From positions 1 to 7,234 of the forward strand of contig CAMLFV010000135.1 in assembly GCA_946479395.1 (NCBI GenBank): 7,234 nucleotides of DNA. Reading direction: 5' to 3'. A program made the position numbers and the translations under genes. Shown here piece by piece: positions 2 through 7,234 of the stretch. Origin of the DNA: an uncultured Flavobacterium sp. GTDB taxonomy: Bacteria > Bacteroidota > Bacteroidia > Flavobacteriales > Flavobacteriaceae. The notes below the pieces were generated by a model. The model was not told the DNA's origin. It ran no database searches and saw only the letters and a list, made by a program, of their open reading frames with translations. Position 1 is the first letter of the stretch. Every line of letters begins with the position of its first letter.

Positions 2-1498
2 GATTTATTGGTTTCAGGAGATTATTATGCATCGCAAACTATTAATGGTTGTGAAAGTTTTGCAAGAACAGGAATCAATGTTGTCATTAATAATTCTCCA
101 ATTCCTTCCGGATACAGTGTTCAGGAATTTTGTGAACCTTTTGTACCAAAAATATCTGATTTACAAATTACAGGAACCAATATAAAATGGTACACAGCAG
201 CAGTTGGTGGCACGCTTTTAACAAGTACAAGTACATTGGTTAACGGATCAACCTATTATGCGTCACAAACACTAAACGGATGTGAAAGCACTACAAGATT
301 TGCAGTAAAAGTAAATGTTTACCCGAATGCACAGCTTGTTACAAGTCATTTGGCAATTTGTGATGTGGCAACTATTAATGATATTTCTATTGAAGGATAT
401 ACAAGTTCGCAATTAAAATGGTACAGCAGTTTAACTGCGACAACGCCATTAAGCCAATCGCAAGTATTAACAAGCGGAACTTACTATATCAGTACATTCA
501 ATTATAATTTATGCGAATCAGCTCGTAAAGCAGTTCAAATAGTAGTATCTAACAATGTACCAATTCCAACAACAAGTACGCTGCAGGCATTTTGTAATAC
601 TGCTACGGTTGGCGATTTGGTGGCAACAGGTATTAATGGAGCATCAATAAAATGGTATAATTCAGCACAAGCAACAACTCCGCTTACTGTAACTACACCA
701 CTTTATAGCGGTACGTATTACGTTGAGCAAGAAATGATGCCTTGTAAATCGCCAAGAATTGCAGTTGCGGTTCGTGTGGTCTCTACAACAGCACCAACAA
801 TGACAGATTTTAAATTATGCGAAGACGCTACTGTAGCCGATTTATATTTAGCGGCATCTACAACCACTAAATATGTATGGTATTTAAACAGTACAACAAC
901 TACAAAACTACCTGATACCTATGTTTTAACAAGTGGTTATTATTATGTTGCGATAGAATCGTATGGATGTATTTCTAATAGAACAAGCGTTCATGTACAA
1001 GTAAATAAACGACCAGCTTCTCCTACAGGTAGTTTAATTCAGAATTTTAACTATCAAGCAAAGGTTGGTAATTTAGTTATGAATCAGCCAAATATTGTTT
1101 GGTATTTAAGCTATAATGATGCTATTAATAAAATGAATGCTTTAAATGCTAGCGATTTATTGGTTGATGGAACTACTTATTACGGTGTTATTGTCGATAC
1201 AAATTCTTGTAACAGTTACCCAACCGCTGTTAAGGTAGGTGTTACTTTAGGAACAAACGATCTTGATTTGGAACAATTGAAATATTATCCAAATCCTGTT
1301 GAAACTGAATTGACGATATCTTATTTAGATAAAATTGAATTAGTTGAGGTATATTCAATGTTAGGTCAGAAAATTGTAGAGCATAAATTTGATACCGAAA
1401 TTGTAAAAATTGATTTCTCTAGTTTTAGCTCTGGAAATTATATTGTAAAAATAGTAAGTGGTAATCAATCACAGTTTGTAAAAATTGTAAAAAAATAA
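2..1498 (+). CDS. Partial (5'-truncated) Ig-like repeat surface/secreted protein with T9SS type A sorting domain
   Basis: The frame is open from the window edge: codons at 2-7 (Asp-Leu) precede the TTG at 8, so that TTG is internal and the true start lies upstream. At least 498 codons are visible, ending at TAA 1496-1498. The protein is an array of repeats of about 76-80 residues, each with a Cys near its start, a central Lys-Trp-Tyr or similar (xKWY/VWY), a Gly-x-Tyr-Tyr strand, and a second Cys in an NGCES-like motif. This matches the Ig-like domains common in Bacteroidota gliding/adhesin proteins. The last 76 residues (1268-1495) carry the YYPNP motif, a GQKIVE strand and a terminal FVKIVKK, typical of the Por secretion tail recognised by T9SS. 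By family knowledge it should be exported by Sec, then moved across the outer membrane and released or anchored. An adhesin or matrix role is inference; no enzymatic domain is visible in this part. Confidence 0.9.
   Translation, partial: DLLVSGDYYASQTINGCESFARTGINVVINNSPIPSGYSVQEFCEPFVPKISDLQITGTNIKWYTAAVGGTLLTSTSTLVNGSTYYASQTLNGCESTTRFAVKVNVYPNAQLVTSHLAICDVATINDISIEGYTSSQLKWYSSLTATTPLSQSQVLTSGTYYISTFNYNLCESARKAVQIVVSNNVPIPTTSTLQAFCNTATVGDLVATGINGASIKWYNSAQATTPLTVTTPLYSGTYYVEQEMMPCKSPRIAVAVRVVSTTAPTMTDFKLCEDATVADLYLAASTTTKYVWYLNSTTTTKLPDTYVLTSGYYYVAIESYGCISNRTSVHVQVNKRPASPTGSLIQNFNYQAKVGNLVMNQPNIVWYLSYNDAINKMNALNASDLLVDGTTYYGVIVDTNSCNSYPTAVKVGVTLGTNDLDLEQLKYYPNPVETELTISYLDKIELVEVYSMLGQKIVEHKFDTEIVKIDFSSFSSGNYIVKIVSGNQSQFVKIVKK
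107..1267 (+). repeat. Five tandem Ig-like protein repeats (plus a partial one upstream)
   Basis: By reading the translation I place repeat units at about 107-334, 335-568, 569-796, 797-1024 and 1025-1267; 2-106 is the end of an earlier unit. Recurring landmarks are an early Cys (EFC, AIC, AFC, KLC), KWY or VWY, a TSGTYY-type strand and a late Cys (NGCES, NLCES, MPCKS, YGCIS, NSCNS). The units are diverged at DNA level, so this is an old protein-level repeat rather than a recent DNA duplication. The final unit lacks the first Cys. Confidence 0.75.
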
Positions 1499-1603: not shown

Positions 1604-2389
1604 TTAATCTTCCTTGATATCAGCGTCTATTTTTTTTAATTCTATTTCTAACAATAAGTTAACTGACTTAGGATCATTTAGTTCTACACCTTTTTCTAAT
1701 ATTTCGTTACCTCTTTCTTCATTACCTGTACTAAAGTAATAGCTTGCTAATAATCCGTAACCTCTTATATCTCCTTTATCAATAATGAATTTTGCTAAAT
1801 TTTCAAGCTTAGAATTGGTTTTAATATTTAATGACTTGTTTTCAAGTAATTGATCTAGACCTCCTAAATCTTCAAGATACAACAATCCAAAATAAGAGGC
1901 ACATGCAGTTGTTAAGCCCTGATTACATAATTTTTCAATAGAATTTTTGTATTTTTCTGGATCAACAAAATAATCAAAACTAACTTGATCGGTTCCTTCA
2001 GTATAATTTATTTTGTAAAATTCGTATAATAGTTTAGGTTCTATTTTATAAACAGGAACGGTAATTTCTTTGGTTCGTATAGTATCTTTGTTTTTTTTGT
2101 AGGTATTATTTTCAACCCAAGAACTATCACCAATTAACTTATCATTGTTTAAGGTAAAAATAAATACGCTTTTATCAGGAAATAGATAGATTTTATTGTC
2201 AATTTGAACATATTCTGCAAGATAAGCTTCGTTGATTAAAGCGTGGCCATCTCCGTTTAAATAAATACTGCTGTATAATTCATTTTCTTTTGTATTAGAA
2301 TAATATCCTTTTAAAGAATTGGAAAAATTCTGAGCAAATAAATTATTTTGAATAAATATTAATGTAAGACATATAATTAGTTTTTTCAT
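1604..2389 (-). CDS. Exported protein with Sel1/TPR-like C-terminal half, function unknown
   Basis: This 261-residue protein begins with a classic signal peptide: MKK, a hydrophobic stretch to about residue 17, and probable cleavage in LFA-Q at residues 19/20. No lipobox Cys is present, so it should be soluble in the periplasm or secreted. Residues about 25-110 look beta-rich (GYYSN, NGDGHA, IYLFPDKS), resembling a small barrel or sandwich domain. Residues about 145-250 are helical and read like Sel1/TPR repeats. Cys155 and Cys163 are separated by seven residues in CNQGLTTAC, the spacing seen in Sel1-like Hcp proteins where such pairs form disulphides. A second unit appears around 206-236. 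I do not recognise a named family. The gene is 68 bp downstream of carB on the same strand but separated from it by a terminator, and I see no good TAnnTTTG promoter. It is convergent with the T9SS-cargo gene. Confidence 0.8.
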   Translation of the reverse strand: MKKLIICLTLIFIQNNLFAQNFSNSLKGYYSNTKENELYSSIYLNGDGHALINEAYLAEYVQIDNKIYLFPDKSVFIFTLNNDKLIGDSSWVENNTYKKNKDTIRTKEITVPVYKIEPKLLYEFYKINYTEGTDQVSFDYFVDPEKYKNSIEKLCNQGLTTACASYFGLLYLEDLGGLDQLLENKSLNIKTNSKLENLAKFIIDKGDIRGYGLLASYYFSTGNEERGNEILEKGVELNDPKSVNLLLEIELKKIDADIKED

Positions 2390-2457: not shown

Positions 2458-4251
2458 TTATTTACTTAAATACATTTTTCTACGAGCGTATAAATCGTAA
2501 AAAGCATCGTCTTTTAAACTATCGATAAACAAAATGCTTTCTCCAGTTGATTTCATTTCAGGTCCTAAAGCTTTGTTTACTTTCGGGAATTTATTGAAAG
2601 AGAAAACAGGTTGTTTAATTGCGTATCCTTTTAACTGCGGATTAAAAGTGAAATCGGTAACTTTTGCACCCAACATTACCTTTGTAGCATAGTTTACATA
2701 AGGTTCGCCGTAGGCTTTAGCGATAAACGGAACCGTACGAGATGCACGCGGATTTGCTTCTATAATATAAACCGTATCATCTTTAACTGCAAACTGTATG
2801 TTGATTAGACCTTTTGTTTTTAAGGCAACCGCAATCTTTTTAGTATGATCTTTTATCTGCTGTAAAACAAACTCACCTAAATTGAACGGAGGCAATGTTG
2901 CGTTTGAATCGCCCGAGTGAACTCCACATGGTTCAATGTGTTCCATGATTCCAATTATGTACACATTTTCACCATCGCAAATAGCATCAGCTTCTGCTTC
3001 TATGGCTCCTGCTAAATAATGGTCTAACAAAAGTTTATTACCAGGAATAGATTTTAATAAATCAATTACGTGCTCTTCTAATTCTTTTTTGTTGATAACG
3101 ATTTTCATTCCCTGACCACCCAATACATACGACGGACGTACTAAAAGTGGGAAATCTAATTCATCAGCTAATTTCGATGCTTCGTCTGCAGTTGTTGCCA
3201 CACCAAATTTAGGGAACGGTATGTTTAATTCGGTTAACAATTCAGAGAAACGTCCACGATCTTCCGCTAAATCTAAAGCTTCAAAGCTTGTTCCAATAAT
3301 TTTAATTCCGTATTTATCTAACTTTTCAGCCAATTTTAAAGCGGTTTGTCCGCCTAATTGCACAATAACTCCTTCTGGTTTTTCGTGACGAATGATATCG
3401 TAAATATGTTCCCAATAAACAGGTTCAAAATATAATTTATCTGCCGTATCAAAATCCGTAGAAACCGTTTCAGGGTTACAGTTAATCATAATGGTTTCAT
3501 AACCACTTTCTGATGCTGCCAAAACGCCGTGCACACAAGAATAATCAAATTCAATTCCTTGTCCAATTCGGTTTGGTCCCGATCCTAAAACAACAATTTT
3601 CTTTTTATCGGTACGAACAGATTCATTTGCAGAATAAGTTGTTCCGTCTGCTTTTTCAATATCAGCTTCAAAAGTAGAATAGTAGTAAGGAGTTTGAGCT
3701 ACGAATTCTGCCGCACACGTATCAACCAATTTATAAACGCGGTTAATATTCATTTGTTCGCGTAATGCATGAATTTCGCTTTCCAAACAACGTAACATGT
3801 GTGCAATTTGGCGGTCTGCAAATCCTTTTTGCTTCGCTTCTAACAACAAATCTTTTGGTAATGAACCCAACGTGTGTTTAGATACCTCTTGCTCTAACGC
3901 GTACATTTCTTCGTACTGTTTTAAGAACCACATATCGATTTTTGTAATCTGATGAATGGTACTTAAAGGAATTCCCAATGCAATAGCATCATAAATCACA
4001 AAAACGCGATCCCATGAAGCATGCTCTAATTTATCTAAAATTTGATCGTAATTCGTGTATCCTTTACCGTCTGCGCCAATTCCGTTACGTTTAATTTCTA
4101 ACGATTGTGTTGCTTTTTGTAAGGCTTCTTGGAAAGATCTACCAATTCCCATTACTTCACCAACCGATTTCATTTGTAAACCTAATGTACGATCTGCACC
4201 TTCGAATTTATCAAAGTTCCAACGAGGAATTTTTACGATAACGTAATCCAA
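2458..4251 (-). CDS. carB: CarB C-terminal fragment (oligomerisation domain and carbamoyl-phosphate half)
   Basis: This is the open stretch after the stops, in the same frame as the N-terminal piece. A start at TTG 4251-4249 is only nominal: in the family this codon is the Leu of FEPTLDYV. The first in-frame ATG is at 4173-4171, inside the conserved LGLQMKSVGEVMG segment, so this was not built as a separate gene. Contents in local residue numbers: end of the first synthetase domain (1-50), oligomerisation domain (about 60-200, RVYKLVDTCAAEF at 171-183), and the second pre-ATP-grasp and ATP-grasp (GSGPNRIGQGIEFDYS at 223-238, RPSYVLGGQGM at 372-382, EHIEPCGVHSGDS at 437-449). The second metal site EANPRASRT (498-506) is intact. 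It ends ARRKMYLSK with no allosteric domain. Confidence 0.75.
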   Translation of the reverse strand: MDYVIVKIPRWNFDKFEGADRTLGLQMKSVGEVMGIGRSFQEALQKATQSLEIKRNGIGADGKGYTNYDQILDKLEHASWDRVFVIYDAIALGIPLSTIHQITKIDMWFLKQYEEMYALEQEVSKHTLGSLPKDLLLEAKQKGFADRQIAHMLRCLESEIHALREQMNINRVYKLVDTCAAEFVAQTPYYYSTFEADIEKADGTTYSANESVRTDKKKIVVLGSGPNRIGQGIEFDYSCVHGVLAASESGYETIMINCNPETVSTDFDTADKLYFEPVYWEHIYDIIRHEKPEGVIVQLGGQTALKLAEKLDKYGIKIIGTSFEALDLAEDRGRFSELLTELNIPFPKFGVATTADEASKLADELDFPLLVRPSYVLGGQGMKIVINKKELEEHVIDLLKSIPGNKLLLDHYLAGAIEAEADAICDGENVYIIGIMEHIEPCGVHSGDSNATLPPFNLGEFVLQQIKDHTKKIAVALKTKGLINIQFAVKDDTVYIIEANPRASRTVPFIAKAYGEPYVNYATKVMLGAKVTDFTFNPQLKGYAIKQPVFSFNKFPKVNKALGPEMKSTGESILFIDSLKDDAFYDLYARRKMYLSK

Positions 4252-4368
4252 AGTTGGTTCAAATAAAGCTGAGGTTGATTTTGTAATTTGATTTTGTAAT
4301 TCGTCTAACGTATAACCTAACGCCAGTTTTGTTGCGATTTTAGCAATTGGATATACTGTTGCTTTTTA

Positions 4369-5307
4369 TTATAAAGCAGATGAACGAGATACACGCTGAT
4401 CTATATCAATTGCCACAATGTCTTCTTTTTCGTCTGGAGATACAGCGAACTGAACGTTACATCCGCCGGCAAAATTACCAATAGAACGCATCATTTTTAT
4501 TGCCATATCGCGCATACGCTGAAACGTACGATCTGATAAGGTCATTGCAGGCGCAACAGTAATAGAATCACCCGTGTGAATTCCCATTGCATCCATATTT
4601 TCAATGGTACAGATAATTACAACGTTGTCGTTTTTATCGCGCAATAACTCTAATTCGTATTCTTTCCAACCCAACAACGCTTTGTCAATCAATACTTCGT
4701 GAATTGGTGAAGCTTCTAAACCGTATGTTAGTAAACCATCAAAATCTTCTTCTTTATGAACAAAAGCAGCACCTGTTCCACCTAAAGTAAACGATGGACG
4801 AATTACCAATGGGAAACCGAATTCCTGTGCTATTTCTTTTCCTTCTAAAAACGAAGTTGCTGTTTTAGCCGGAGCAAAAGGAATATCGATTCTTGATAAT
4901 AATTGCTTAAACTGTTCGCGATCTTCAGTTACATTAATAGCGTTGATATCAACACCGATTAATTTCACGTTGAAATCTTGCCAGATACCTTTTTCATCTG
5001 CTTCCAAACATAAATTTAAAGCTGTTTGTCCGCCCATTGTTGGTAAAACTGCATCGATTTCCGGATGCGCTTTTAAAATTTCAATGATCGATTTTGTGTT
5101 TAAAGGCTTTAAATATACATGATCCGCCATGGAAGGATCGGTCATGATGGTTGCAGGATTTGAATTGATTAGGATTACTTTGATTCCTTCTTCACGTAAA
5201 GAACGTGCCGATTGCGACCCTGAATAGTCAAACTCACAAGCCTGACCAATGATGATTGGACCAGAACCAATGATTAAAACTGTTTTAATTGAATTATCTT
5301 TAGGCAT
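4369..5307 (-). CDS. carB: CarB N-terminal fragment (carboxyphosphate half, truncated at 312 aa)
   Basis: This is the piece of carB translated before the stops. It holds the first pre-ATP-grasp region (GSGPIIIGQACEFDYSGSQ at about 14-32, then LINSNPATIMTDP and LPTMGGQTALN) and most of the first ATP-grasp domain: Arg130, Arg170 with the SFTLGGTGAA loop, GWKEYELE at about 213-220, MGIHTGDSI at 241-249 and NVQFAV near 284-289. It ends at RVSRSSAL, before the last part of the synthetase domain and without the oligomerisation domain. A protein ending here is unlikely to be active alone. The ATG at 5307 aligns with the family N-terminus (MPK...). No strong promoter is visible in 5308-5393; only a weak TAAATTTA-like element appears. 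Confidence 0.8.
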   Translation of the reverse strand: MPKDNSIKTVLIIGSGPIIIGQACEFDYSGSQSARSLREEGIKVILINSNPATIMTDPSMADHVYLKPLNTKSIIEILKAHPEIDAVLPTMGGQTALNLCLEADEKGIWQDFNVKLIGVDINAINVTEDREQFKQLLSRIDIPFAPAKTATSFLEGKEIAQEFGFPLVIRPSFTLGGTGAAFVHKEEDFDGLLTYGLEASPIHEVLIDKALLGWKEYELELLRDKNDNVVIICTIENMDAMGIHTGDSITVAPAMTLSDRTFQRMRDMAIKMMRSIGNFAGGCNVQFAVSPDEKEDIVAIDIDQRVSRSSAL

Positions 5308-5393
5308 TGTAAATAATTGGTGTTGTTATTTAGGTAAATTTATTGATAATTAGTTGAAATTCATCTTAAAAAAAGAGAAAAACGAAAAGGTAT

Positions 5394-5423
5394 AAAAAAA
5401 GGCGATACACTTAAAGTAACGCC
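5394..5423 (-). terminator. Rho-independent terminator of rpmH
   Basis: On the minus strand GGCGTTAC (5423-5416) faces GTATCGCC (5408-5401) with one mismatch around a TTTAAGT loop, followed by seven T (5400-5394). It begins 22 bases after the rpmH stop and lies upstream of carB, so rpmH and carB are probably not a simple operon. Confidence 0.8.
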
Positions 5424-5444
5424 TTTATTTATGATGAAACATCA

Positions 5445-5606
5445 TTATTTTTTATGTCTTGGTTCGCTAGAAACCGTTAACTTATGTCTTCCTTTAGCTC
5501 TTCTGCGTGCTAATACTTTTCTACCGTTAGCGCTAGCCATTCTGTCCATGAAACCGTGTTTGTTTCTTCTTTTTCTTTTTGATGGTTGAAACGTTCTCTT
5601 ACTCAT
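5445..5606 (-). CDS. rpmH: 50S ribosomal protein L34
   Basis: This 53-codon gene runs from ATG 5606-5604 to TAA 5447-5445. The product begins [19 protein letters not shown] and continues with [23 protein letters not shown], the L34 signature of a very basic short helix pair that binds 23S rRNA in the large subunit. Length is slightly above the usual 44-46 residues because of a C-terminal extension (about residues 42-53, ending EPRHKK), which I recall as common in Bacteroidota. There is no Shine-Dalgarno box, only A-rich leader. It has its own promoter (5679-5708) and terminator (5394-5423). In many bacteria rpmH sits beside dnaA/rnpA; here its neighbours are carB and a TPR gene, so no oriC link is implied. 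Confidence 0.97.
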
Positions 5607-5678
5607 TGCTTCTTATCTTTAAATCTATAAATTTTACAAATGTTCAGCTTTGAAATCAAGCAGCTTCAAAACCGAGTG

Positions 5679-5708
5679 CAAATATACAAATCCTTTTAAA
5701 ACCTACAA
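5679..5708 (-). promoter_or_regulatory. Bacteroidota-type promoter of rpmH
   Basis: On the minus strand TTG (5708-5706), a 19-base spacer and TATATTTG (5686-5679) match the Bacteroidota primary-sigma consensus TTG...TAnnTTTG. Transcription would begin around 5672, giving a leader of about 65 bases before the rpmH ATG. Confidence 0.75.
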
Positions 5709-5770
5709 ATTGTTTTTTAAAATAATTTTACTTTTATGTTACTAAATGTACTATAATTTAAAAACAACTT

Positions 5771-5799
5771 TTGTTGCTTATAGGATTTTACTACATTTG
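5771..5799 (+). promoter_or_regulatory. Bacteroidota-type promoter of the TPR membrane-protein gene
   Basis: TTG (5771-5773), an 18-base spacer and TACATTTG (5792-5799) fit TTG...TAnnTTTG. Transcription would begin around 5806, just upstream of the ATG at 5822. This decides the start of that gene: the in-frame TTG at 5771 is a promoter element, not a start codon. Confidence 0.75.
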
Positions 5800-5821
5800 C
5801 AAAATTAAAAATAAAACAGAC

Positions 5822-6385
5822 ATGATTAACAAGAATATAAAAATTATAGTTGCAGCCCTTTTATTAGCTACAGCAATTTGGCAGTTTACAGAAAACAATA
5901 TTGGCAACGGTATATTTTTAATTATTTTGGTACTGTTAATTGTACTGATTTATTTTAAGAACGAAATGCTTATTATGACCTTGTTTAAGTTTAGAAAACA
6001 AGACATGGACGGCGCTAAAAAAATTCTTTCTAAAATTAATCCCGAAACGGCTTTGGTTAAAAATCAGCAGGGATATTATTATTATTTAAACGGTATCATC
6101 AATGCTCAAAATAATTTAAATCAGGCAGAAAAAGATTTTCGTAAGGCAATTGATTTAGGTTTGAACCAGAAAGAAGATCTGGCAGTTTCTAAATTACAGT
6201 TGGCAGGAATTGTAATGAGTAAAAACCGTCCGGCTGAAGCACAGAAATTGATTGCCGAAGCAAAACAGCACGATACCAAAGGAATGCTGAAAGAACAGAT
6301 TTCAATGATCGAAGGTCAAATGAAACAAGCTCGCGGACAAAAAGTTCCTATGTGGTACAACCAAAGCAAGAAAAGAGGTTTTTAA
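5822..6385 (+). CDS. Membrane-anchored TPR-like protein, function unknown
   Basis: The product is 187 residues from ATG 5822-5824; the longer reading back to TTG 5771 is rejected because it overlaps the promoter. Two hydrophobic segments (about 6-22 and 28-45, joined by a short WQFTENNIGNG turn) form a membrane hairpin. They are followed by a soluble helical part with TPR character: helix pairs at about 52-80, 83-115 (QGYYYYLNGIINAQ then AEKDFRKAIDLGL) and 118-150 (SKLQLAGIVM then PAEAQKLIAEAK). The tail is basic and ends MWYNQSKKRGF. Similar two-TM plus TPR proteins are, to my recollection, common and uncharacterised in Flavobacteriia; TPR domains suggest a protein-binding role in the cytoplasm at the inner membrane. 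It is divergent from rpmH and ends at a clear terminator, so it is probably monocistronic. No catalytic motif is seen. Confidence 0.85.
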   Translation: MINKNIKIIVAALLLATAIWQFTENNIGNGIFLIILVLLIVLIYFKNEMLIMTLFKFRKQDMDGAKKILSKINPETALVKNQQGYYYYLNGIINAQNNLNQAEKDFRKAIDLGLNQKEDLAVSKLQLAGIVMSKNRPAEAQKLIAEAKQHDTKGMLKEQISMIEGQMKQARGQKVPMWYNQSKKRGF

Positions 6386-6406
6386 TTTCTTTACAACATA
6401 AGTATT

Positions 6407-6437
6407 AAGCCATTCATTTACAGAGTGGCTTTTTTTA
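6407..6437 (+). terminator. Rho-independent terminator after the TPR gene
   Basis: AGCCATTC (6408-6415) pairs with GAGTGGCT (6423-6430) with one U-G wobble around a 7-base loop, followed by a run of T to 6437. It lies 22 bases after the stop codon and separates the TPR gene from the lipoprotein gene. Confidence 0.88.
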
Positions 6438-6492
6438 TAAATTCAGTTTTTATCAATAACATTAAATATCTAACCTTAAAACAAACACTAAA

Positions 6493-7234
6493 ATGTATCA
6501 TAAATTAATAATTAGTTTACTTTGTATTTTATTTATCAGTTGTAATAAATCTGAAAATAATAGAACAATTGATTTTTCTAAAGACCGTGATTTTAGAATT
6601 ATCAATATTTTTAATGAACAAACGTATGCCGATTTAGAACAAAGGCTTCCAAACAACATCAAACCCAATTCCGAAAGCGAAGAATCGTATGCTTTTTATT
6701 CTTATTTATCGCTTAAAGCTAACAAAGAATATACTTTCTTAATAGGCAATAAATTTATGTACGGAACTTATGCTGTAATCAATAAAGATGAAATCGTACT
6801 GAAATCTGAAGAATTTGGAGAGATTCCTTTAAAAATTATGAAGGAAGAAAATGGTTGCGTTCAAATTCATGGAGATTTTAAAGCTTACAAAAGCGATATG
6901 ATGTTAGAGTTAGATGGAAATACAAAGTATTATTTAAACCTAAATACCGATTTTGCAAAACTGGGAAAAGAAAATGATATTCGATCTGTAGCATTCAACC
7001 AATGGCGTTTTCAACCACAGCAAAAAGAAACCGACGAAGAAATTAAAAACCGATTAATTTTAAACTTAAAGTATATCGCTGCTTACATGCGCGTGCACAT
7101 GTACGGCGGGTTCAATCAAATTCATACAGCCGGTATTCATTCGCCTTTTCTGTATGCAAGAAACGGACTGTTTTTGTATGAATGGAAACGTGTGCCTTAT
7201 TTTTGGAAACATGTTTTTTTTGATGAAAAAGATG
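6493..7234 (+). CDS. Partial (3'-truncated) putative lipoprotein, function unknown
   Basis: From ATG 6493-6495 the frame stays open to the window edge, giving 247 residues without a stop. The N-terminus MYHKLIISLLCILFISC is a lipoprotein signal peptide with a lipobox LFISC; Cys17 would be lipidated, followed by a polar linker NKSENN. The mature part is mixed alpha/beta with many Tyr and Phe residues (YAFYSYLSLKANKEYTFLIG, MYGTYAVINKDEIVLK). Toward the edge comes a His/Tyr/Trp-rich stretch at about 200-245 (MRVHMYGGFNQIHTAGIHSP, then LYEWKRVPYFWKHVFF). I do not recognise the family and name no function. The scattered His residues are suggestive but not a known metal motif. The gene follows the terminator at 6407-6437; no clear TTG/TAnnTTTG promoter is seen in 6438-6492. 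Its 3' end is beyond the window. Confidence 0.8.
   Translation, partial: MYHKLIISLLCILFISCNKSENNRTIDFSKDRDFRIINIFNEQTYADLEQRLPNNIKPNSESEESYAFYSYLSLKANKEYTFLIGNKFMYGTYAVINKDEIVLKSEEFGEIPLKIMKEENGCVQIHGDFKAYKSDMMLELDGNTKYYLNLNTDFAKLGKENDIRSVAFNQWRFQPQQKETDEEIKNRLILNLKYIAAYMRVHMYGGFNQIHTAGIHSPFLYARNGLFLYEWKRVPYFWKHVFFDEKD

What the first reader, a model, noticed from the sequence alone, without database searches (positions are those of the whole stretch)
4366..4371. Two tandem in-frame TAA codons inside an otherwise full-length carB
On the minus strand the frame from 5307 to 2458 is exactly preserved (5307-4251 is 352 codons). Codons 313-314 read TAA TAA where CarB proteins have Ala-Ser in SSALASKATGYPIAK. 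Frame and homology resume immediately. Turning Ala-Ser codons into two TAA needs at least three base changes, so this is not a single random nonsense mutation, and readthrough of a double TAA is very unlikely. There is no ATG near the break to start a second protein (first is at 4173), unlike the naturally split carB genes of some archaea and thermophiles. Either the strain lacks this enzyme (arginine and pyrimidine need) or the assembly is wrong here.
Basis: partly seen in the sequence, partly recalled or inferred. Interest (0 to 1): 0.72.

Follow-up and report, generated by a model that had tools for sequence, protein, structure and literature searches.

The report
Error cluster in a normal gene
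The two stop codons in this bacterial gene belong to a tight knot of odd base changes in an otherwise healthy gene, which looks like a sequencing or assembly error rather than biology.

Summary
The double TAA is in the given sequence (minus strand, 4371-4366, codons 313-314 of a 949-codon carB frame), but it is not isolated. Against 82 close CarB proteins of equal length, the window has six residues at otherwise invariant columns, all in codons 301-318: the two stops, Asp for Glu (301), Asp for Asn (303), Gln for Pro (304) and Val for Gly (318). None of the 82 relatives has more than two such singletons in 18 codons.

At DNA level nine private changes fall in 51 bases. Six are C-to-A/G-to-T, against 6 of 136 elsewhere in the stretch comparable with two relatives (p = 6e-6). 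carB has no indel against the nearest relative. The rest of the gene looks constrained: 93 of 102 private changes are at third codon positions. In 161 of 161 fetched loci the region is intact.

The most likely explanation is a local consensus error: a poorly read stretch entered the assembly. The organism, a relative of Paenimyroides/Flavobacterium dauae, very probably has intact carB. No reads and no whole genome were available, so a very recent clustered mutation is not excluded.

The parts
2458..5307 (-). carB reading frame (carbamoyl-phosphate synthase large subunit), 949 codons plus stop, interrupted at codons 313-314
   Evidence: up to 99% identity (C-terminal query) to 949-aa CarB proteins; Pfam CPSase_L_D1, D2 and D3
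4354..4407 (-). anomalous stretch: codons 301-318, with six residues (two of them stops) at columns invariant in the 82 relatives compared; nine private base changes between 4355 and 4405
4366..4371 (-). TAA TAA, codons 313-314
4369..5307 (-). 312-aa open frame before the stops: pre-ATP-grasp domain and 186 of 211 profile positions of the first ATP-grasp domain (which ends at residue 336 in an intact relative)
2458..4365 (-). 635 codons after the stops: rest of the first synthetase half, oligomerisation domain and second synthetase half, uninterrupted

Best explanation
The gene is an ordinary carB of a flavobacterium close to Paenimyroides / Flavobacterium dauae. The double stop is most likely not in the organism. 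About 51 bases of the consensus (4355-4405) carry a cluster of substitution errors from a poorly read stretch that was not outvoted by other reads, for example low coverage or low-quality read tails. Shown here: the clustering, the changed substitution spectrum, the absence of indels, the normal constraint on the rest of the gene, and the intact region in every locus examined. Inferred: that the source is a base-calling or read-merging error, because no reads could be examined.
For: (1) Six of the seven residues seen in at most one of 82 close CarB proteins lie in 18 codons, with 0 of 2,000,000 random placements as tight. As a control, the largest count of singletons at otherwise invariant columns in 18 codons is 2 among the 82 relatives and 6 in the window. 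(2) Substitution spectrum: 6 of 9 polarised private changes inside 4355-4405 are C>A/G>T, against 6 of 136 outside (Fisher p = 6e-6); in carB alone 6 of 9 against 5 of 102 (p = 1.5e-5). The borders of the stretch were set by the changes themselves, not by their type. (3) Six of 9 changes inside are at codon positions 1-2, against 9 of 102 outside (p = 1.5e-4), so the surrounding gene looks constrained and no decay is visible. (4) carB aligns to the nearest relative over 2850 of 2850 bases without a gap, which suits substitution-type errors. (5) All 161 fetched loci (140 distinct near-complete carB sequences) are intact at all six columns: 157 have the exact motif inside an open frame of at least 900 codons, and L049, L068, L077 and L066 have it with one variant residue elsewhere in the motif. 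(6) A 23-base pattern over four of the changes (not the stops) is absent, at up to 2 mismatches, from 398 of 398 genomes of the genus sampled. (7) On four-colour Illumina machines A/C share one laser and G/T the other, with correlated intensities (PMC4381044, passages read). Substitutions tend to cluster, and a miscalled G is mostly read as T in the data set described (PMC4787001, passages read).
Against: No reads, coverage or platform information were available, so error is inferred from pattern only. Three of the nine changes are not C>A/G>T (one of the three is a synonymous third-position change that could be natural). The published Illumina profiles do not fit fully: in the data set of PMC4787001 the preferred wrong base for A, C and T was G, which the window does not show, and PMC4381044 reports A and C as the more error-prone bases on MiSeq. 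A strain without carB is not unheard of: 19 of 397 genomes of the family had no match better than E 1e-10 (17 weak only, 2 none), whether through incomplete genomes or true loss was not checked. A single clustered-mutation event in the living cell would give the same sequence.
Confidence: 0.85

Rival explanations
1. A real, very recent clustered mutation (one error-prone synthesis or repair event) destroyed carB in this strain, making it dependent on outside arginine and pyrimidines or on a second enzyme.
For: The cluster fits one event better than independent hits. The rest of the gene is intact, which is compatible with a very recent event. 19 of 397 genomes of the family lack a strong carB match (cause not checked).
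Against: Eight to nine substitutions in 51 bases, with both C>A and G>T on one strand and no indel. No better-than-random template elsewhere in the window: longest match 11 bases, and 48 of 200 random controls reached 11 or more. None of the 161 loci shares it. Loss of a central biosynthetic enzyme would be costly (general knowledge).
Confidence: 0.08
2. This is a decaying second copy, and an intact carB lies elsewhere in the genome.
For: No whole genome is held for the window, so a second copy could not be sought. In one search, 3 of 120 genomes list two carB places: in G446 and G428 a full-length one plus a partial one on another contig (second copy or contamination, not checked), and in G431 two pieces of complementary parts.
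Against: Outside the cluster 93 of 102 private carB changes are at third codon positions. The window is collinear over 2458-7234 with a 90% identical relative. In the four flavobacterial genomes searched, one full-length carB each was found; the other matches were its own N-terminal half or weak ATP-grasp relatives.
Confidence: 0.03
3. A functional split carB or programmed readthrough: the two pieces make a working enzyme together.
For: Frame and homology resume immediately after the stops. A TTG at 4251 could open a 597-aa frame.
Against: The break falls inside the first ATP-grasp domain (profile position 186 of 211), not between domains. Codons 301 and 303 correspond to E. coli CarB residues 299 and 301 (alignment), recalled as metal ligands, and both are changed. 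Two consecutive TAA are a poor readthrough site (general knowledge). None of the 161 fetched loci has this arrangement.
Confidence: 0.02
4. A deliberately made knock-out (laboratory strain with two stops and active-site changes written in).
For: Double TAA plus changed active-site residues resembles a designed null allele.
Against: The Gly-to-Val, the synonymous changes and the C>A/G>T bias serve no design (inference). The six window proteins scanned with Pfam include no marker-type family, and there was no match in the plasmid collection at near identity.
Confidence: 0.02

Closest known systems
CarB of Paenimyroides ummariense (P0125) and Flavobacterium dauae (P0121)
   Same: 949 aa; differ from the window frame at 15 and 16 of 949 positions; the same Pfam domains, shown for P0125
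   Different: Both have the invariant motif across codons 301-318 with no stop; the window has six deviations there
Clustered substitution errors in short-read (Illumina) data
   Same: Substitutions without indels, clustered, six of nine between bases read by the same laser
   Different: Platform and coverage of this record are unknown, and the preference for a wrong G reported in one paper is not seen, so the match is by pattern and only in part
Naturally split carB of some archaea and thermophiles (recalled)
   Same: carB sequence in two open frames
   Different: Recalled split genes separate the two synthetase halves; here the break lies inside the first ATP-grasp domain, with altered conserved residues and no ATG near the break

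Membership tests
Carbamoyl-phosphate synthase large subunit (CarB) | Two synthetase halves (pre-ATP-grasp + ATP-grasp) joined by an oligomerisation domain | tested here: met
   D1 and most of D2 before the stops; D3, D1 and D2 after them
Carbamoyl-phosphate synthase large subunit (CarB) | Conserved Glu and Asn (E. coli 299 and 301) in the first ATP-grasp domain | tested here: not met
   Asp at codons 301 and 303, where 82 of 82 relatives compared have Glu and Asn; numbering from the alignment; role as metal ligands recalled
Carbamoyl-phosphate synthase large subunit (CarB) | Single uninterrupted reading frame | tested here: not met
   TAA TAA at codons 313-314
Naturally split carB | Break between domains, with a start codon for the second piece (definition recalled) | tested here: not met
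   break within PF02786; no ATG until 4173; TTG at 4251 lies 38 codons after the break
Decayed pseudogene | Loss of constraint along the gene | tested here: not met
   93 of 102 private changes outside the cluster at third codon positions; one rare residue in the other 931 codons
Sequencing / consensus error | Local cluster with a spectrum unlike natural divergence | tested here: met
Sequencing / consensus error | Not supported by independent reads | not testable with these tools
   no reads or coverage available; no whole genome held

The most novel reading that the evidence does not exclude
A single mutational shower, rich in C-to-A/G-to-T changes and confined to about 50 bases, hit carB in the living cell. 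It changed two conserved residues recalled as metal ligands and placed two stops at once, leaving a strain that lives on outside arginine and pyrimidines.
Probability: 0.08. Interest if true: 0.45.

Novelty: not a real feature. Interest (0 to 1): 0.1.

Why it matters
It warns that an apparent loss of a key enzyme can be a 50-base patch of bad consensus. The checks used here (several invariant columns broken at once, substitution spectrum, constraint elsewhere in the gene) give a quick way to tell such patches from true gene loss in unverified assemblies. If the cluster were real, it would be a clean natural example of clustered mutation inactivating a central gene.

Tried and rejected
Template switching: substrings of the anomalous stretch that cover at least two changes match elsewhere in the window for at most 11 bases, and 48 of 200 random controls did as well or better, so there is no support for copying from a nearby sequence. 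Templates elsewhere in the genome could not be sought.

Recombination with another record: a 23-base pattern over four of the nine changes was in none of 398 genomes of the genus at up to 2 mismatches, and a 26-base pattern over the same changes had no exact match in viral contigs. Neither pattern reaches the stops. One search (near identity only) found nothing similar to the window among plasmids.

Apparent stops in other carB genes: one search listed 49 of 140 rows with in-frame stops, two of them at codon 313 (L097, L098; L098 also at 314), and one row with a gap at 314. I put these down to projecting gapped alignments onto the window's coordinates. One search read the loci directly: L097 and L098 are uninterrupted (956 and 957 codons), and 157 of 161 loci have the exact motif in a frame of at least 900 codons. 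The other four have it with one variant residue each; the length of their frames was not checked. The stops in the other 47 rows were not traced one by one.

Limits of the samples: one search listed 120 of 8000 scored proteins, and I used the 82 of exactly 949 aa, which are uninterrupted by that choice, so for the stops the 82 are no independent evidence (for the other four columns they are).

Oxidised guanine during library preparation was considered, because it also gives C-to-A/G-to-T (general knowledge). It was ranked below base-calling error because both directions occur on one strand of one molecule (inference). Literature on it was seen only as search listings with the starts of abstracts. 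A search for the metal ligands of CarB gave no usable paper among the 8 listed.

Another dense spot, 3000-3049, has 14 differences from the 90% relative, but no rare residue was flagged there, so it was taken as ordinary divergence. A second set of C>A-rich 51-base windows near 6450-6531 coincides with a gap-rich stretch of the alignment, mostly between genes, and was put down to alignment noise.

Full report
What is there. On the minus strand a carB frame runs from ATG at 5307 to TAA at 2460-2458. It is 949 codons long and has TAA TAA at codons 313-314 (4371-4366), with frame and homology resuming at codon 315. The domains are those of a normal CarB: pre-ATP-grasp and most of the first ATP-grasp domain before the stops, and the oligomerisation domain and second synthetase half after them. 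The closest named proteins are from Paenimyroides ummariense (P0125, 15 of 949 positions different from the window frame) and Flavobacterium dauae (P0121, 16 of 949). No whole genome is held for the window.

The stops are part of a larger local anomaly. I compared the frame with the 82 proteins of exactly 949 aa among the 120 that one search listed (of 8000 scored); the other 38 listed were not used. Only seven residues of the window are seen in at most one of the 82. Six of them are in codons 301-318: Asp for Glu (301), Asp for Asn (303), Gln for Pro (304), the two stops (313, 314) and Val for Gly (318). All six columns are invariant in 82 of 82. Proteins of full length are uninterrupted by choice, so for the two stops this is not independent; for the other four columns it is. 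In 2,000,000 random placements of seven residues none was as tight. As a control I treated each relative in the same way. Of 83 rows including the window, 60 have no singleton at an otherwise invariant column, 19 have at most one and 3 at most two within 18 codons, and the window has six. Codons 301 and 303 align with residues 299 and 301 of E. coli CarB, which I recall as metal ligands; that role was not confirmed here.

DNA level. Where these two agree and the window differs, nine changes fall in 4355-4405. Six are C>A/G>T, two T>A/A>T and one T>C/A>G. Outside the stretch 6 of 136 such changes are C>A/G>T (p = 6e-6); within carB alone it is 5 of 102 (p = 1.5e-5). The borders of the stretch were set by the changes themselves, not by their type. 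Six of the nine are at codon positions 1 or 2, against 9 of 102 elsewhere in carB. carB aligns to the nearest relative over 2850 of 2850 bases without a gap. So the gene outside the stretch shows normal divergence under selection, and the stretch has a different spectrum and ignores coding constraint.

Relatives. All 161 loci fetched, several of which are repeats of the same place (140 distinct near-complete carB sequences), are intact at the six columns. They were found with the piece after the stops or with the interrupted DNA itself, so they were not chosen for being uninterrupted, though one search kept only the best 80 of 592. One search found the exact motif in 157, each inside a frame of at least 900 codons; L049, L068 and L077 were read and L066, each with one variant residue elsewhere in the motif. 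Of the 240 proteins hold the exact motif and 38 do not. The first 20 of these 38 were printed: 10 have a one-residue variant and continue normally, and 10 end or shift frame near or before this place, as expected for the fragments that admits by length; none of the 20 shows the window's changes. In one search, 395 of 397 genomes of the family have a match at E 1e-3. The listed rows that match the query over its full length 1-635 have open frames of 930 to 998 codons and no stop inside. Against my reading, 19 of the 397 have no match better than E 1e-10 (17 weak only, 2 none), so absence of a recognisable carB does occur in that sample, through incomplete genomes or loss (not checked). A 23-base pattern over four of the changes was found in 0 of 398 genomes of the genus at up to 2 mismatches, and a 26-base pattern in 0 viral contigs as an exact match; neither reaches the stops.

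How it most likely arose. A patch of substitutions without indels, six of nine being exchanges within the pairs A/C and G/T, in a gene that otherwise shows no sign of decay, points to a base-calling or consensus error. On four-colour Illumina machines A and C are read with one laser and G and T with the other, and their intensities are correlated (PMC4381044, passages read). Substitution errors tend to cluster and rise towards read ends, and a miscalled G is mostly read as T in the data set described there (PMC4787001, passages read). The same paper reports G as the preferred wrong base for A, C and T, which is not seen here, and the two papers do not give one uniform profile. A stretch covered by one poor read, or by the overlapping tails of one read pair, would give this picture. 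This last step is inference: platform, coverage and reads are unknown.

Against this reading. A single clustered mutation in the cell would look the same in a consensus. I give it about 8%. It lacks a template in the window (longest match 11 bases, equalled or exceeded by 48 of 200 random controls), and no fetched locus shares it. A split gene is unlikely because the break is inside the first ATP-grasp domain and conserved residues next to it are changed as well. A decaying second copy is unlikely because the rest of the frame is conserved; but 3 of 120 genomes list two carB places (two of them a full-length one plus a partial one on another contig, one in two complementary pieces), so second copies cannot be ruled out in general.

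Verdict. The gene, and probably the organism's arginine and pyrimidine synthesis, is ordinary. Interest is low unless reads show the cluster to be real.

Noticed in passing
window 2458-5307: CarB here and in its close relatives is 949 aa; the intact relative P0125 aligns to residues 1-917 of the 1073-residue E. coli chain and shows no C-terminal regulatory (MGS-like) domain in Pfam, suggesting an enzyme without the usual allosteric domain.
   Followed up: partly
window 1604-2389 (-): 261-aa frame with no Pfam match. It lies in an interval of the window about 890 bases longer than the matching interval of the relative L135, so it may be an inserted or lineage-specific gene.
   Followed up: no
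window 8-1498 (+): Protein with Ig-like (Ig_7) domains and a Por secretion C-terminal sorting domain, so probably secreted.
   Followed up: no
window 2457/2458: The match to the 90% relative L134 runs from 2458 to the window end and stops exactly at the carB stop codon, so the region downstream of carB differs between the two.
   Followed up: no
window 6493-7233 (+): Frame of at least 247 aa, open at the window end, with no Pfam match; its start reads like a lipoprotein signal (inference).
   Followed up: no
G446 and G428: Two relatives list a full-length carB plus a partial, 78-79% identical carB piece on another contig: second copy, strain mixture or contamination.
   Followed up: no
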